Origin: Euhalothece natronophila Z-M001
GTDB lineage: Bacteria > Cyanobacteriota > Cyanobacteriia > Cyanobacteriales > Rubidibacteraceae
DNA length: 64,000 nt
NCBI RefSeq assembly: GCF_007904085.1
Contig: NZ_CP042326.1
Coordinates: 806,001-870,000, forward strand
Direction of reading: 5' to 3'
The position numbers and the translations under genes were made by a program. Position 1 is the first letter of the stretch, and each line of letters opens with the position of its first letter. The notes under the pieces are model-generated. The model had not been told where the DNA came from and did not search any database. It saw only the letters and a list, made by a program, of their open reading frames with translations. Shown one piece after another: positions 17,679-26,654 of this stretch.

Positions 17679-19013
17679 TCCGACAGGACAACCTTAAATC
17701 TTTTGTGTTAGCATTAATTTAACCACAAAGTTCAGCATAAGATGTTTGTCTTAGAGTTTAAGGTCAAAGCCAAAAAAGCTCAATATCAAGCCATTGACGA
17801 AGCAATTCGGACGACACAATTCATCCGAAATAAGTGCATTCGTTACTGGATGGATAATCAAGGCGTTAATAAATACGCTCTCAACAAACTCTGTAAACAA
17901 TTAGCAGAGGAGTTTTCTTGGGCGAAAAAACTAAACTCTATGGCAAGACAGTCCGCTGCTGAACGGGCTTGGTCTTCAATTAGTCGGTTCTATGACAACT
18001 GTAAAAAAGGAATTAAAGGAAAGAAAGGGTATCCTCAGTTCCAAAAAAACAACCGCAGTGTTGAATATAAAACTTGCGGTTGGAAACTTGATCTCAATAC
18101 CCGAAAGCATATAACTTTCACTGACAAAAAAGGCATTGGTCGGGTTAAGTTAATTGGAACTAGAGACCTTCATTTCTACCATCCTGATGAAATTAAACGA
18201 GTACGGTTACTTCGCAGGGCTGACGGTTACTATTGTCAATTCCTGATTAATACAGAGGTAAAAGAACAACTAGAACCCACCAAGAGAACCATAGGATTAG
18301 ATGTTGGTTTAGAATCTTTCTACACTGACTCTGATGGTCAGAAAGAGCCTAATCCTCGTTTCTTTAGAGAGGGGGAACAGAAGTTAAAACGGCTTCAACG
18401 CCGTCTTTCTAAGAAACAGAAAGGATCATCTAATCGCAGAAAAGCAAGACAGAAGTTAGGGAAAGCACATTTAAGAATAAGTAGGCAACGTAAAGAACAT
18501 GGAAAGAGAATCGCACGTTGCGTAGTGAAGTCTAACGACTTCATCGCCTATGAAAACTTAAAGGTGTCTAACATGGTTAAAAACCACTGTCTAGCTAAGT
18601 CAATTTCAGATGTTGGTTGGTATCAGTTCCGAGTGTGGTTAGAGTATTTTGCACAAAAGTTTGGGAAGGTAGCGGTTGCTGTTCCTCCTCAATACACTTC
18701 TCAAGAATGCTCTAACTGTGGTCGAATTGTGAAAAAGTCTCTATCAACTAGAACCCATGCTTGTCAGTGTGGGACTAAATTGGATAGAGATGAAAATGCC
18801 GCGATTAACATTCTGAGAGAAGGACTCCGTACAGTCGGGCGGACTGGAACGGCTGGCTTCGAGCCAGACTCAAAGCTTGTGGAGAGACCCGCCTCTACTT
18901 CAGTTGTTTCCGAACAATTGGGGCAAGCGGACTCGTCTGCTGGAAACCTAGTTTCTAGTAGTTAGAAGCAAGAATCTCCCACTATAATCTCTGATTTAGT
19001 GAGAGAGCGTCAA
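17679..19013 (+). mobile_element. Solo TnpB (IS200/IS605-type) element 1
   Basis: The tnpB gene is bracketed by a left hairpin GTCC-GACA-GGAC (17679-17690) and a right-end hairpin (CTCCCACTA ... TAGTGAGAGAG, 18976-19007) followed by GTCAA at 19009-19013. The second TnpB element in the window has the same plan, including terminal GTCAA. No tnpA is present, so movement would need a transposase supplied from elsewhere. The left boundary is approximate. Confidence 0.6.
17742..18965 (+). CDS. tnpB: TnpB RNA-guided nuclease / IS605 OrfB
   Basis: 407 residues. TnpB proteins are RuvC nucleases guided by a right-end RNA of their transposon; they are the ancestors of Cas12. Seen here: the N-terminal helical start (FIRNKCIRYWMDNQG), RuvC-I IGLDVGL (Asp near 187), RuvC-II AYENLKVSN (Glu near 271), the zinc ribbon CSNCG ... 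CQCG, and RuvC-III LDRDENAAINIL (Asp near 349). All catalytic residues are kept, so it may be active. A tail of about 50 Ser/Gly-rich residues follows RuvC-III, likely because the guide RNA overlaps the end of the gene. It is clearly related to, but diverged from, the protein at 44176. Confidence 0.9.
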   Translation: MFVLEFKVKAKKAQYQAIDEAIRTTQFIRNKCIRYWMDNQGVNKYALNKLCKQLAEEFSWAKKLNSMARQSAAERAWSSISRFYDNCKKGIKGKKGYPQFQKNNRSVEYKTCGWKLDLNTRKHITFTDKKGIGRVKLIGTRDLHFYHPDEIKRVRLLRRADGYYCQFLINTEVKEQLEPTKRTIGLDVGLESFYTDSDGQKEPNPRFFREGEQKLKRLQRRLSKKQKGSSNRRKARQKLGKAHLRISRQRKEHGKRIARCVVKSNDFIAYENLKVSNMVKNHCLAKSISDVGWYQFRVWLEYFAQKFGKVAVAVPPQYTSQECSNCGRIVKKSLSTRTHACQCGTKLDRDENAAINILREGLRTVGRTGTAGFEPDSKLVERPASTSVVSEQLGQADSSAGNLVSSS

Positions 19014-21078: not shown

Positions 21079-21518
21079 TAATTTATGGCGTAAGAGGTAA
21101 TAAACAGAATTATGGCGAATATTTAGCGAGACTTAGACCAAATACCGAACGCGATCGCGCTTCAACCTCCCCAGTTAGTAGAGATGATGCGAGAGGAAGT
21201 AGAACAAATGCAGAAGTCATATAGCAATCCCAAGTCATTTGTAAATTCGGCTGTGACTGAAACCCTTACTGTGTAAAGCGCAATTTTTCACGAATCATTT
21301 AGGATTGCTATATCAGTATCTTTGATTTATTACTAGTTCTCTATCTAAATCACAATCTAGATCATTATTAATCTACTTTTATCCCATCCCATCTCCACAA
21401 TGCTTTAAAATAGTTACGATACTATTATTATGTGATAGAACTTATATCCAATTCCAAAACTCTTAGAACTAATTGTCCTAGTTTTTACTTGATCTTATAC
21501 AAGCAGTATTAGGAAATC
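21079..21518. other. 440-bp intergenic region with MITE and a broken reading frame
   Basis: Bases 21111-21276 read MANI, a stop, then RDLDQIPNAIALQPPQLVEM and on to a stop in the MITE, so this may be the relic of a small gene; I cannot name it. The MITE (21219-21313) lies inside. The last 200 bp before the TPR-GTPase gene are AT-rich and show no clear promoter. Confidence 0.5.
21219..21313. mobile_element. 95-bp MITE with 23-bp terminal inverted repeats
   Basis: The left end ATATAGCAATCCCAAGTCAT and the inward-read right end ATATAGCAATCCTAAATGAT match at all but three positions and continue a few bases further. There is no coding capacity. The outer TA bases on both sides would fit a TA target duplication of an IS630-type parent, if the ends are taken as TAGCAATCC. 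Confidence 0.7.
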
Positions 21519-24500
21519 ATGCTAAATTTAAATGTGATAAAAGGGATTGCTCGTAAAGAAATCGGAGATATAGAAGGCGCGATCGCTGATTTTAATGAGG
21601 CGATTCGTTCTCAACCTGACGATGATTTTGCCTACCTTCAGCGAGGGCTAATTCGCAAGGATCAACTCAATTTTGATGATGCGATTGCTGATTATACTGA
21701 GGCAATTCGTCTTAATCCTGATTATACTGAGGCTTATTATGAGCGTGGGCTGGCTCGTATTGGTCAAGGGAATTTAGAAGGTGCGATCGCTGATTTTACT
21801 GAAGCAGTTGGTCTTAATTCTGATTATACTGAGGCTTATTATGAGCGTGGGCTGGTTTATCTTGAGAAGATGAACTTAGAAAGCGCGATCGCTGATTTTA
21901 CTGAAGTAGTTCGGGTTAATTCTGATTATGCTGAAGCCTATTATAACCGAGGAAAAACTTATTGGCAACAAGGGAATTTAGAAAGCGCGATCGCTGATTT
22001 TACTGAAGTAGTTCGGGTTAATCCTGATTATACCGAAGCCTATTACAGCCGAGGAAAAACTTATTGGAAGCAAGGGAATTTAAAAGAGGCGATCGCTGAT
22101 TTTACCAAGGTAATTCGTGTCAAGCCTGATTATACTGACGCTTACAATGATCGAGGGCTGGTTTACCTTGAGAAAGGAGATTCAGATAGCGCGATCGCTG
22201 ATTTTAATGAAGCCATTCGTCTAAATCCTGATGATCCTCAAGCCTACTATAACCGAGGAAATGTTCGCTCTAATCAAGCAGATTTAGATAGCGCGATCGC
22301 TGATCTTAATGAAGCCATTCGTCTAAATCCTGATGATTCTGAAGTCTATAAACAACGAGCAATTTTCTATTATAATCAAGGCTACTTAGAAAGCGCGATC
22401 GCTGATTTAAATGAAGCCATTCGTCTGAATCCTGATGATCCTCAAGCCTATAAGAAACGAGGATTTGCTTACTATAATAAAGGCAACTTCAAGGGAGCAA
22501 TCGCTGATTTAAGCAAGCAAGTTGTCTTAATTATCATTACTAGCTTTTTTTGGGTAGTAGAAAAGTTATCTCCAAAGTCTCTTTTAGCTGCTAATCAGTC
22601 TTTTCCAAAACTTAAACCAGTAAAATTCCCCATTAATGAAACACAGATATGGAAACTCTTGTTCTCACTTAGTCGCTTCAAGTTTGCCCGTTATTTAGCA
22701 TTGAAAGCGATGAATTATGACTTTATTAGAAATTGGGTAATTAAAAGGGCTCAGTCTGAAATTTCAGGACAGGTATCGGAGATATGGAATTGGTCATCAG
22801 CGCAACTAGGAAATTTTTTTGAGGGTGCAATTGATTCTAAAGAGGATCAAAATAAAAATCATTTTAAGGGTTTAGATAAGGGGACTAAACTAGAAAATAT
22901 TTTATGGAATGATCCTGACTATCAAAATGGAATTAAACAGAGCGCGATCGTCTCCCATGAAGATTATCCATTTGCCAAAGATGCGTTAGAAAACACGGAA
23001 TTCAAACTGAAGGAATTAGAAGAGAAACTGACTCAAACCCTTACCGATATCAAAAATCAGATTAATCAACAAGCAAAAGCAGAAACCGCCCAAGAAGTGA
23101 TTGATCGTTTGGATGAAACAACTCAGGCTCTTAAAGAGGAAATTAAAACCAAACTGAAAGCAGTTCAAGATTCTCTAGAAGAGAAAAAGAGAAATCTGGA
23201 TTCTTTTACAATTGCGTTTATAGGAAGAACGAAAGCAGGTAAGAGTACCTTACATTCAATTTTAACTGAACAAGGATGGAGTGAGATTGGGGATGGAGAA
23301 CAACGCACAACTCGCCAAAATCGTTTTTATGAATGGAACAATATTCGCATCATCGACACCCCTGGAATTGGCGCACCGGGCGGTAAAACTGACGAAGAAA
23401 CTGCCCAAAGTATTATTAATGAAGCCGATTTAGTAGTTTTTGTTGTCACTAATGATAGTCAACAGGAAAGTGAATTTCAGTTTCTCAAACTATTAAAAGA
23501 GAATGCAAAACCCCTTTGTATTTTACTGAATCTCCGTAAAAACTTGAACGACTCACGACGAGGACAATATGAGTTGAAAAGACTTCTCGAAAATCCGAAT
23601 CGAGTCTTTGATAATAAAGAAATGCAGGGACATTTTAATCGCATTCGGGGTTATACTGAAAAATACTATGGTAATGATTATTTTAGCATTATTCCTGTGA
23701 TGCTATTAGCGGCGCAGCTTTCTTATGAAGATAAACATGAACACCAGAAAGAGGAACTTTGGGAAGCGAGTCGAATTGAGAATTTTTTAGAGCAAATTCG
23801 CTTATCTATAGTTGAACAGGCAGGAATTCGCCGTTCTCAAAACTTATTAGGCAGTACAGTAAAGGTAATTGAAGAAGCGAATATTTGGACGAAGGAGCAA
23901 GCCACTTCTTACCAGACTTTAGCGGAAACAATCAAGAATAAGCAAGAAACATTACAGCAGGATATTGATAAAGCCATTGAAGAAACAGAGAAAAATTTAG
24001 AAAGTATAATTAATGAATTGTTTGCAGAAATCAGAAAGATCGTACCAGAGTTTGCTGATCAACATTGGAATGATTCAGCAGATGAGCTAGAAAAAGCATG
24101 GAAAGTAAAACTTAATTATCTAAATTTTGAAAAAAAGCTCAATGATAGTCTTGAAGAAGAAAGTAATCACTTTACTAATAAAGTCCAGCAATTACTAGAA
24201 GAATTAGGAAAAGATTTACAGTTTACTGCAAAGTCAGGAGGAATTAAAGGTTTTAAGTTGAATGATCAAAATCCCTATCACTTGAAAGAAGCCCCAGGTT
24301 TGGCAGGTGGGTTATTTGGAATTGCTGGTGCTATTGCTTTTTTAGTGCCAGGTGGCTTTATTCCAGGTATAGTTATGGAAGTTGTTGGAGCTGTGATAGG
24401 TTTAATTGCCAAGCCTAAAGCTGAGATTAAGAAAGAAGCTATTAATAAAATTACCAAATCATTACGACAGCAGATTGATCAAAAAGAAAAAGAATTGACT

Positions 24501-26654
24501 AATCAAGTAACCGCAGCATTTCAGAGACATTGTAACCCAGTTAAGAGAGAAATAAATACTTATCTTGATCAACTCATAAGTGGCTTAACAACGATTTCTG
24601 AGGAATTACAGACAACTGAATATAACTTAGAAGAACAAGTTAATTTTCTCAACTGCGCTTACGGAAAACGGATTATAGATTGGAGTCAAAACCATTATGA
24701 ACCTCTTACTCAAGAGGCAATTAACCATGAGATAGTTAGTGTCAACCGAGAAATTGGCAAAAGGATTACGATCAAAGCCAAAAATCAGTTGACTATCACT
24801 CGCAGCCAAGAAGAACTAGACTCGATATTACAAGAAAAAGTCATACTTCAGATAAGTGATATCCCTAAAAAAAGAGCATCTAAAAGGAGAAAACAAATGA
24901 ATACTTATCATCACTACGATTCTAAATTTGAAGTGAATGAAATTAGCCAACGCTTTCACACTCACTTAAACCAATTTAAGCAAATCCTATCTTCTCAAGA
25001 AGAGGAACAATTAAAAGAAATTCAGAATCAGTTAAGTCAGGAATTAGATCACTATTACCAACATGGAATCCTGACGATTGCCTTCATTGGACAATATAGC
25101 GCAGGAAAATCTACCATTATTTCTGCTTTAACAGGAAAACGAGATATTTACATTGATGCAGATATCGCTACCGATACCACAGCACTTTATGACTGGAATG
25201 GCATCAAAATTATAGATACCCCTGGACTTTATACAGAGCGAACCGAGCATGATCAAATTACTTATGATGCCATTGAAAAAGCTGATTTATTGGTGTTCTG
25301 TTTAACCAATAATCTCTTTGATCAGATTACCGCCGATAACTTCAAAAAACTTGCGTATGATAAAGAGTATGCTGGAAAAATGATGTTAGTCGTTAATAAA
25401 ATGTCTCAAGAAGCAGGGGAACAACAGGAGTTAATTGAGAATTATAAAAAAACTCTTGCCAAAACTTTAGAACCTTATCCGTTAGAGAATTTTTCGCTAT
25501 CTTTTATTGATGCCAAAGATTACTGTGATGGAATTGACGAAGAAGATGATTTATTAATTGAATTAAGTGGGTTTTCTGAGTTTCTCCAATCTCTAAATCA
25601 GTTTATAGAAGAAAAACGAATTATGGCTCGTCTCGATACACCAGTACGGATTACATTATCTAAACTCAATGATGCAGAGTTAGCGGTACAACGGGATGAG
25701 AATGAAGAAGATGATTATTTAGAATTAGTCAATCGTTGTGCAAGAAGAGTCGAAGAGGAAAGAAAGCGTTTTCGCACAGAAGTTAAGACAATTGCTCTGG
25801 AACTAAACTCAAAAGTACGGAAAGAAGCAACTCCTTTAGTTGATAAAATAGGAACGATTGAGAGTCAAGAAGAAGCGAATAAATTAAGTAATCAAGCAGA
25901 TGAAAATATACAACAACACTGTGACTCAGCTCAAAAATCACTTGAAAATGTAGCTAACAAGGCTCAAGTTTCTCTAAGGGACTCTCTTCAGGAACTTTTA
26001 GATGCAGAGTTTACCCAAGTTTTGATCGAACGTTTAGAAAAACAGACTAATGTATCTCCCGATGGACTCCATAGAAGTGAAGGTAGAGAAGAACAACTGA
26101 ATGAGCTTCTAAAATTGGGAGAGTTTGTTAGTAATAACTTATATCAATCTGCGCAAAATTTTATTCCATTAGTGGGAAAAGATGGATTTTTATCCAGTTG
26201 GAATGTAATTGGAAGTCCTTTGCATAAAGGAGTTTATGAAGTTGGCAAATTTCTTGGTGTAAACTTTAAGCCGTTTCAGGCAGTTAACATAGCTAAAAAT
26301 CTTGGGAATGCAGGTAAAGTTGCTGGTAAAGTTTTGGGGCCAGCTATGGTCATTGTGACAGCTGCAATGGAGGTTAAAAACTTTCAAGAAGAAAAACAAA
26401 AAAGTGAAGAACTTTCTGAAGATTATAAACAAATCAATAGTCAATTTACTGAGTTAGCTCAACAATTCCAAACCCAACTTGAAAGTATCGCGCAAGAGGT
26501 AGAGAAACAAATCTACGATGAAACAGCAGAAAAAATTGAACAAATGCGAGAAGCTCACAATCAGAACATTAATCAAAATCAGGAACAAGTACAACAATTA
26601 GCCAAGTTACGTCAAGAGTTTAAACAGATTCTCTCAGAAATTAGCTCATATTAG
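21519..26654 (+). CDS. TPR protein fused to two dynamin-like GTPase modules
   Basis: A 1,711-residue protein. Residues 1 to about 340 are ten 34-residue TPRs (GAIADFNEAIRLNP type), a protein-binding platform. A short hydrophobic break (VVLIIITSFFWVV) and a helical linker lead to GTPase 1: P-loop FIGRTKAGKST near 567-577 and switch/G3 IIDTPGIGAPGG near 610. A long coiled coil follows, with a hydrophobic hairpin (LAGGLFGIAGAIAFLVPGG, about 927-960) that resembles the membrane-inserting paddle of bacterial dynamins. GTPase 2 has FIGQYSAGKST near 1189-1199, IIDTPGLY near 1231 and VVNKMS near 1291, then more coiled coil and a second weakly hydrophobic stretch (about 1585-1625). Two tandem GTPases recall Bacillus DynA. 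The likely job is membrane binding or remodelling, possibly in stress or phage tolerance; that is inference. No partner gene is evident apart from 26936, which lies downstream on the same strand. Confidence 0.85.
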   Translation: MLNLNVIKGIARKEIGDIEGAIADFNEAIRSQPDDDFAYLQRGLIRKDQLNFDDAIADYTEAIRLNPDYTEAYYERGLARIGQGNLEGAIADFTEAVGLNSDYTEAYYERGLVYLEKMNLESAIADFTEVVRVNSDYAEAYYNRGKTYWQQGNLESAIADFTEVVRVNPDYTEAYYSRGKTYWKQGNLKEAIADFTKVIRVKPDYTDAYNDRGLVYLEKGDSDSAIADFNEAIRLNPDDPQAYYNRGNVRSNQADLDSAIADLNEAIRLNPDDSEVYKQRAIFYYNQGYLESAIADLNEAIRLNPDDPQAYKKRGFAYYNKGNFKGAIADLSKQVVLIIITSFFWVVEKLSPKSLLAANQSFPKLKPVKFPINETQIWKLLFSLSRFKFARYLALKAMNYDFIRNWVIKRAQSEISGQVSEIWNWSSAQLGNFFEGAIDSKEDQNKNHFKGLDKGTKLENILWNDPDYQNGIKQSAIVSHEDYPFAKDALENTEFKLKELEEKLTQTLTDIKNQINQQAKAETAQEVIDRLDETTQALKEEIKTKLKAVQDSLEEKKRNLDSFTIAFIGRTKAGKSTLHSILTEQGWSEIGDGEQRTTRQNRFYEWNNIRIIDTPGIGAPGGKTDEETAQSIINEADLVVFVVTNDSQQESEFQFLKLLKENAKPLCILLNLRKNLNDSRRGQYELKRLLENPNRVFDNKEMQGHFNRIRGYTEKYYGNDYFSIIPVMLLAAQLSYEDKHEHQKEELWEASRIENFLEQIRLSIVEQAGIRRSQNLLGSTVKVIEEANIWTKEQATSYQTLAETIKNKQETLQQDIDKAIEETEKNLESIINELFAEIRKIVPEFADQHWNDSADELEKAWKVKLNYLNFEKKLNDSLEEESNHFTNKVQQLLEELGKDLQFTAKSGGIKGFKLNDQNPYHLKEAPGLAGGLFGIAGAIAFLVPGGFIPGIVMEVVGAVIGLIAKPKAEIKKEAINKITKSLRQQIDQKEKELTNQVTAAFQRHCNPVKREINTYLDQLISGLTTISEELQTTEYNLEEQVNFLNCAYGKRIIDWSQNHYEPLTQEAINHEIVSVNREIGKRITIKAKNQLTITRSQEELDSILQEKVILQISDIPKKRASKRRKQMNTYHHYDSKFEVNEISQRFHTHLNQFKQILSSQEEEQLKEIQNQLSQELDHYYQHGILTIAFIGQYSAGKSTIISALTGKRDIYIDADIATDTTALYDWNGIKIIDTPGLYTERTEHDQITYDAIEKADLLVFCLTNNLFDQITADNFKKLAYDKEYAGKMMLVVNKMSQEAGEQQELIENYKKTLAKTLEPYPLENFSLSFIDAKDYCDGIDEEDDLLIELSGFSEFLQSLNQFIEEKRIMARLDTPVRITLSKLNDAELAVQRDENEEDDYLELVNRCARRVEEERKRFRTEVKTIALELNSKVRKEATPLVDKIGTIESQEEANKLSNQADENIQQHCDSAQKSLENVANKAQVSLRDSLQELLDAEFTQVLIERLEKQTNVSPDGLHRSEGREEQLNELLKLGEFVSNNLYQSAQNFIPLVGKDGFLSSWNVIGSPLHKGVYEVGKFLGVNFKPFQAVNIAKNLGNAGKVAGKVLGPAMVIVTAAMEVKNFQEEKQKSEELSEDYKQINSQFTELAQQFQTQLESIAQEVEKQIYDETAEKIEQMREAHNQNINQNQEQVQQLAKLRQEFKQILSEISSY
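24884..24899 (+). promoter_or_regulatory. Internal ribosome site and ATG at the second dynamin half
   Basis: AAGGAG at 24884-24889 lies 7 nt before an in-frame ATG at 24897 (residue 1127 of the 1,711-residue protein). It precedes GTPase 2. Translation from here would give a free second dynamin of 585 residues. It may instead be a relic of two once-separate genes. Confidence 0.5.

What the first reader, a model, noticed from the sequence alone, without database searches (positions are those of the whole stretch)
21519..26654. 1,711-residue TPR protein with two dynamin-like GTPases
Ten TPRs, then two full GTPase modules, each with P-loop and DTPG, and a putative paddle helix between. Two-headed bacterial dynamins (Bacillus DynA) are known for membrane protection and phage tolerance, but a fused long TPR receptor in front is unusual to me. 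TPRs could sense a partner and recruit or gate the dynamin. It is the best candidate in the window for an undescribed system, possibly defence or membrane-stress related.
Basis: partly seen in the sequence, partly recalled or inferred. Interest (0 to 1): 0.8.

Follow-up and report, generated by a model that had tools for sequence, protein, structure and literature searches.

The report
TPR-fronted, two-headed Leo-type dynamin
A cyanobacterial gene encodes one giant membrane-remodelling protein made of two dynamin-like engines of an already catalogued pair (LeoBC and LeoA), but with a protein-binding repeat array in place of the family's usual front domain, an unusual swap seen only once here.

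Summary
The 1,711-residue ORF at 21519-26654 (+) is real: nine full TPRs, a truncated tenth, a linker of about 85 residues, then two dynamin-like GTPases with intact P-loops and DTPG motifs. The dynamin part is not undescribed: it is the LeoBC-LeoA pair (PADLOC 9e-131 and 5e-147), a known bacterial dynamin pair that defence finders list as 'Dynamins' (grouped with Eleos). Fold matches are LeoA, BDLP and IniA.

Unusual are the fusion of both heads and, above all, the front. In 80 related loci no ORF holds both heads; 45 of 59 full-length LeoBC proteins scanned carry TerB in front, and only the window's carries TPRs. The host's second copy (65% identical) is also fused but keeps TerB; homology between the copies starts abruptly in TerB's last helix. 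A congener's LeoBC lacks TerB altogether, so the front is variable. No other TPR-LeoBC was seen, though short arrays in unread frames are not excluded. Both heads are under purifying selection (dN/dS 0.26-0.30). A ribosome-binding-like site remains before LeoA.

Likely reading: a front-domain variant of a known membrane/defence dynamin, TPRs serving as adaptor. Function untested; an accidental fusion remains possible.

The parts
21511..21518 (+). Shine-Dalgarno-like AGGA just before the ATG
   Evidence: read in the sequence; not tested
21519..22514 (+). TPR array, residues 1-332: nine complete 34-residue repeats and a truncated tenth
   Evidence: Pfam TPR_11/TPR_1 E about 1e-69; spacing exactly 34; 102-bp DNA period; fold search top hits are consensus TPR superhelices
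22515..22769 (+). linker, residues 333-417, no detectable relative, mostly low model confidence, one hydrophobic stretch VVLIIITSFFWVV
   Evidence: tblastn of residues 329-425 against all loci then held: only its own copies at E below 0.1; own-genome DNA search: itself plus 32 bases of the shared LeoBC start in the paralogue; pLDDT below 50 over 339-379 and 381-425
22770..24893 (+). dynamin head 1 = LeoBC (residues 418-1125), beginning with the last helix of the otherwise missing TerB domain (QVSEIWNWSS)
   Evidence: PADLOC LeoBC 9e-131, best stretch 488-1107; 69% identical to the paralogue's LeoBC; P-loop 569, DTPG 613
24291..24416 (+). hydrophobic tip ('paddle') of head 1, residues 925-966
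   Evidence: Kyte-Doolittle 19-residue means 1.68-2.12; low pLDDT 917-962
24882..24899 (+). ribosome-binding-like AAAAGGAG and internal ATG (24897) at the former LeoA start
   Evidence: read in the sequence; a similar site in the paralogue; not tested
24897..26651 (+). dynamin head 2 = LeoA (residues 1127-1711)
   Evidence: PADLOC LeoA 5.3e-147, best stretch 1136-1709; top PDB fold match LeoA 4aur, E 1.7e-10

Best explanation
It is a Leo-type tandem bacterial dynamin in which both heads (LeoBC then LeoA) are on one chain, and in which the N-terminal TerB domain of its progenitor has given way to a TPR array, the join lying inside the last TerB helix, in an extra copy of the locus (shown by sequence comparison). 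Inferred mechanism: the two heads form the GTPase-domain dimer that separate LeoBC and LeoA chains are thought to form; the hydrophobic tips insert into a membrane; GTP-driven assembly tethers, fuses or seals membrane, protecting the cell when the envelope is damaged, phage infection being the favoured trigger. The N-terminal module (TerB in most relatives, TPR here) is the adaptor that docks the machine on a partner protein or holds it off until a partner binds; the swap would re-aim an old machine at a new partner. A retained ribosome-binding-like site suggests that free LeoA may also be made and co-assemble.
For: LeoBC and LeoA models match in order over nearly their full length. Fold matches LeoA, BDLP, IniA for the heads and TPR superhelices for the front (TM-scores low). 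TerB at E <= 0.01 in 45 of 59 A2 members, TPR families in the window member only. Of 92 domain matches in ORFs scoring 300 bits or more in the 80 loci, none begins after residue 166. A LeoA ORF of its own in 72 of 80 loci, both heads in one ORF in 0 of 80. Paralogue L002: TerB-LeoBC-LeoA in one ORF of 1398 aa, 65% identity over 1304 aa, homology beginning at window residue 418. dN/dS 0.258 (LeoBC) and 0.300 (LeoA) against the paralogue. Suggested heterodimer and membrane role: PMC4159319 (passages and section 16).
Against: No test of function in this lineage. TerB is not universal: the congener G001's LeoBC ORF (664 aa) begins at profile position 179, without TerB, as does L036, and 14 of 59 A2 members gave no TerB match, so the front may simply be dispensable. 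No clear defence island: of 10 window ORFs scanned, only the IS605/TnpB-type gene (Cas12f-like models) and a weak PDC-S03 match appeared. Neighbour tallies were inconclusive: 131 PADLOC families hit among 111 near ORFs, 80 among 83 far ORFs. The TPR version is a singleton, so conservation says nothing for it. Linker mostly of low model confidence.
Confidence: 0.55

Rival explanations
1. Accidental fusion: a duplicated Leo locus lost its TerB 5' end and was joined by illegitimate recombination to a TPR gene fragment and a stretch of formerly non-coding DNA; the TPR part is a tolerated passenger that supplies promoter and start codon, while the dynamin heads (and LeoA from its own internal start) still work.
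For: Abrupt junction inside TerB's last helix; linker without relatives and mostly of low model confidence; truncated tenth TPR; architecture found once only; TerB-less LeoBC in G001 and L036 shows that the front can be lost; internal ribosome-binding-like site before LeoA.
Against: The reading frame stays open over 1711 codons and nine TPRs keep their consensus; both heads are under purifying selection at dS 0.72-0.79, though this dates the duplication, not the fusion.
Confidence: 0.3
2. A housekeeping membrane-remodelling dynamin (thylakoid, envelope or vesicle maintenance) rather than a defence protein, with TPRs as a localisation adaptor.
For: Cyanobacteria carry many dynamin-like proteins with proposed membrane roles (PMC5827413, PMC9950537: passages); in ETEC the leo genes affect vesicle release (PMC4159319: passages).
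Against: Patchy presence: 48 of 388 genomes of the order sample and 11 of 386 of the phylum sample at E <= 1e-60, and 2 of 6 in the genus at E <= 1e-30, which fits an accessory role better.
Confidence: 0.25
3. Assembly or misjoin artefact that places a TPR gene in frame with a Leo gene.
For: Singleton architecture; repeats are prone to misassembly.
Against: The genome is in 5 contigs, rated 99.99 complete and 0 contaminated; the ORF is open across the junction; the linker DNA was found nowhere else in the genome. Reads were not available.
Confidence: 0.04

Closest known systems
LeoABC of enterotoxigenic E. coli (LeoA structure 4aur)
   Same: tandem pair of bacterial dynamin heads in the order LeoBC then LeoA; model and fold matches
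   Different: separate genes in ETEC, LeoBC even split in two (PMC4159319, section 16); the word TPR does not occur in that paper; here one chain with TPRs in front
PADLOC 'Dynamins' / DefenseFinder 'Eleos' (LeoA + LeoBC)
   Same: both component models hit strongly; Eleos is called a Dynamins-like defence system in PMC11811056 (passage)
   Different: fused in one ORF, N-terminal TPR; no phage test; DefenseFinder models not run here
TerB-LeoBC-LeoA paralogue in the same genome (L002:1207-5403) and a further fusion in genome G168 (L132:1458-5705)
   Same: both heads in one ORF
   Different: both have a TerB-like front (Pfam for L002; by eye for L132); neither shows TPRs
Bacillus subtilis DynA
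   Same: two dynamin heads in one chain; linked to phage resistance (PMC8844932, start of abstract in a search listing)
   Different: not compared by sequence here; no TPR known to me (recall)

Membership tests
Leo dynamin pair (PADLOC Dynamins: LeoBC + LeoA) | both component models match, LeoBC before LeoA | tested here: met
   LeoBC 9e-131 at 488-1107, LeoA 5.3e-147 at 1136-1709
Leo dynamin pair (PADLOC Dynamins: LeoBC + LeoA) | P-loop and DxPG in both heads | tested here: met
   569/613 and 1191/1233
Leo dynamin pair (PADLOC Dynamins: LeoBC + LeoA) | bacterial dynamin fold in both heads | tested here: met
   Foldseek: 4aur, 2j68, 6j72 for LeoA; 6j72, 2j68, 4aur among the matches of the TPR+LeoBC model, behind TPR proteins; E-values good, TM-scores low
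Leo dynamin pair (PADLOC Dynamins: LeoBC + LeoA) | two adjacent separate genes (usual form, not strictly defining) | tested here: not met
   one ORF here; in the 80 loci no ORF carries both heads, LeoA being found as an ORF of its own in 72
TerB-LeoBC form | N-terminal TerB domain on LeoBC | tested here: not met
   no TerB in window residues 308-527 at E <= 0.1; TerB in 45 of 59 A2 members; only TerB's last helix remains
Eleos / Dynamins anti-phage system | protection against phage | not testable with these tools
   family label only (PMC11811056, PMC10999152 passages)
DynA-type two-headed dynamin | closer sequence kinship to DynA than to Leo | not tested
   no DynA sequence was compared; the Leo models already match strongly

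The most novel reading that the evidence does not exclude
The N-terminal module of Leo dynamins is an exchangeable sensor/adaptor socket: TerB in the common form, TPRs here, nothing in some relatives (and a C-terminal YbjN-like tail in others), so that a single cell runs two two-headed dynamins with the same engine aimed at different partners by TerB and by TPR.
Probability: 0.3. Interest if true: 0.6.

Novelty: new variant of a known kind. Interest (0 to 1): 0.35.

Why it matters
How Leo/Eleos dynamins are recruited and triggered is not established in what I read. A natural copy with the front module swapped, beside a TerB-fronted copy in the same cell, is a ready-made comparison: exchange or delete the fronts and see whether location or trigger follows. 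The covalently fixed 1:1 head pair would also suit work on the proposed LeoA-LeoBC heterodimer.

Tried and rejected
Rejected: chance ORF (domains); non-dynamin GTPase fold (IRG and GIMAP proteins are in the list but behind LeoA, BDLP and IniA); a donor for the linker in the same genome (itself and 32 bases of the shared LeoBC start); an evident donor for the TPR array (best other match in the own genome 32% identity, best in the genus 52% over 99 residues); decayed TerB in the linker (only the last ten TerB residues align with significance); carriage by viruses or phages (47 pattern matches in viral contigs, none confirmed; no match in 50,697 phage records at E <= 1e-10); plasmid carriage of close relatives (4 of 72,556 records at E <= 1e-20, best 38% identity).

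Led nowhere: empty-site comparison. The neighbours DUF4126 and the RcnB-like gene were not found in the 5 other genus genomes, and in the 15-17.5 kb taken from each of the five beside the shared flank gene none of the window's genes from 9.3 to 27.4 kb was found, response-regulator cross-matches apart. Defence-neighbour comparison: 111 near and 83 far ORFs from loci L035-L082, out of 166 near and 123 far listed (itself limited to ORFs of 100-699 aa in loci with far genes; two L045 ORFs were also left out); 131 families hit near, 80 far, but the tool gives tallies by family, not by gene, so no enrichment can be claimed. The VIA-align library was not available.

Print. No title or abstract start listed showed a TPR-Leo or TPR-bacterial-dynamin fusion; some lists were cut (20 of 30, 20 of 40, 10 of 3,415). 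Subscription papers, including the original Dynamins/Eleos defence paper (recalled as Millman et al. 2022), were not seen.

Full report
Observation. The ORF 21519..26654 (+) is open for 1711 codons. Its front holds ten TPR anchors at exact 34-residue spacing, nine complete repeats and a truncated tenth (Pfam TPR_11 9.6e-70). Two GTPase modules follow, each with P-loop and DTPG (569/613, 1191/1233).

Identity. PADLOC profiles assign residues 488-1107 to LeoBC (9e-131) and 1136-1709 to LeoA (5.3e-147). AlphaFold models of residues 1-1125 (59-row alignment, mean pLDDT 72.2) and 1126-1711 (46 rows, mean 77.3) were compared with the PDB. LeoA of ETEC (4aur, E 1.7e-10), BDLP and IniA lead for the second head. 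TM-scores normalised by the query are low (about 0.13-0.30 for dynamins), which I take to be hinge differences between long helices; the E-values, not the superposition, carry the assignment. Parts of the TPR region and most of the linker have pLDDT under 50.

Relatives. A pattern scan of the genome-contig collection with an 8-row LeoBC alignment gave 87 relatives, of which 80 loci were kept. All 80 have LeoBC ORFs. In 72 of 80 a LeoA ORF of its own was found on the same strand, and in 0 of 80 one ORF holds both heads. In the other 8 no LeoA reached 90 bits; seven of these stretches end soon after LeoBC at a contig edge, L079 does not. From the 80 loci 58 full-length, closed LeoBC ORFs were aligned with the window (A2); shorter, split or open ones were left out, which favours proteins with a front domain. 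Pfam finds TerB at E <= 0.01 in 45 of 59 members and TPR families in one, the window (the first 25 of 53 families shown). A profile of the window's own TPRs hits no LeoBC ORF in the loci searched; it hits one neighbouring ORF, in L114.

TerB is not universal. The congener G001 has a 664-residue LeoBC that starts at profile position 179 and so has no TerB, and L036 starts at 183. The front of LeoBC is therefore variable or dispensable in some lineages, a point for the passenger rival as well as for the idea of an exchangeable socket.

Surveys. In 388 genomes of the order, 48 have a match at E <= 1e-60, at 51 places. Three open frames exceed 980 aa: the window (1713 from stop to stop), its paralogue (1411) and G168 (1417). 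G168 was read: a TerB-like front, LeoBC and LeoA in one ORF, apparently an independent head fusion, without TPRs. The other 48 places have frames of 980 aa or less, too short for an array like the window's in front of a full LeoBC; most were not read one by one, so a short TPR array is not excluded. A phylum sample gave 11 of 386, at places already seen. Both surveys scored at most two candidates per genome.

Origin. The same genome holds L002:1207-5403, TerB-LeoBC-LeoA, 1398 aa, 65% identical over 1304 aa. A small gene upstream of the Leo locus is shared by L002 and G001 (76% over 133 aa) and was not found in the window, so L002 seems to sit at the older locus and the window to hold the extra copy. 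In G001 the two heads are separate genes. dS is 0.72-0.79 between the window and the paralogue and 0.96-1.2 between either and G001; dN/dS is 0.26-0.30 between the copies. Homology between the copies starts at window residue 418, inside the last TerB helix, so the window's progenitor had a TerB domain. The linker before it has no relative among the loci held or in the genome. In both copies a ribosome-binding-like sequence precedes the former LeoA start, so the head fusion looks like loss of the LeoBC stop, and separate LeoA may persist (inference).

Mechanism. Shown: domain order, intact P-loop and DTPG motifs, selection on the heads, absence of TerB and presence of TPRs. From the literature: LeoA may need a heterodimer with LeoBC, and the leo genes influence vesicle release (PMC4159319, passages and section 16); LeoA+LeoBC are counted as an antiviral system (PMC10999152, PMC11811056, passages); Eleos is reported as enriched in Rhodococcus (PMC10482375, passages). 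Inferred: membrane tethering or sealing on GTP-driven assembly, with the N-terminal module as adaptor. The defence role here is unproven: neighbour scans were not informative.

Novelty. The system kind is known; the TPR front and one-chain form are a variant. The TPR form is a singleton in what was searched, which is why both adaptive swap and accidental passenger remain open.

Noticed in passing
L043:9605-12613, L051:7235-10168, L135 (minus strand, 980-residue open frame): LeoBC forms with a C-terminal extension; Pfam YbjN matched 2 of 59 A2 members (that these are L043 and L051 is inferred from their length), and L135 has a similar-looking tail by eye.
   Followed up: partly
L132:1458-5705 (-): Fusion of a TerB-like front, LeoBC and LeoA in one 1415-aa ORF in another family of the order.
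   Followed up: yes
L006:1495-3489 and L036:9983-12187: LeoBC ORFs that begin after the TerB part of the profile (no TerB), in a congener and in a Calothrix MAG.
   Followed up: partly
L114:3330-4217 (+): A TPR gene with seven TPR-profile matches lies upstream of LeoBC in a Fibrimonas MAG, with small ORFs between; the only + strand TPR ORF found by that profile in the loci searched.
   Followed up: partly
window 17742-18965 (+): IS605 OrfB/TnpB-type gene, matching Cas12f-like models, upstream of the locus.
   Followed up: partly
L002:766-1167 and L134:7199-7597: Small conserved gene (133 aa, hydrophobic C-terminal segment) directly upstream of the older Leo locus; the L006 version had no Pfam hit.
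   Followed up: partly
window ORF residues 665-675: Head 1 (LeoBC) lacks a canonical N/TKxD G4 motif; an LLN- or LIN-type sequence stands there in the eight aligned proteins of A1.
   Followed up: no
plasmid records CP067932.1, NZ_CP054968.1, NZ_CP116215.1: Partial LeoBC-like GTPase matches (30.5% identity over 53% of the query) on three Klebsiella plasmids.
   Followed up: no
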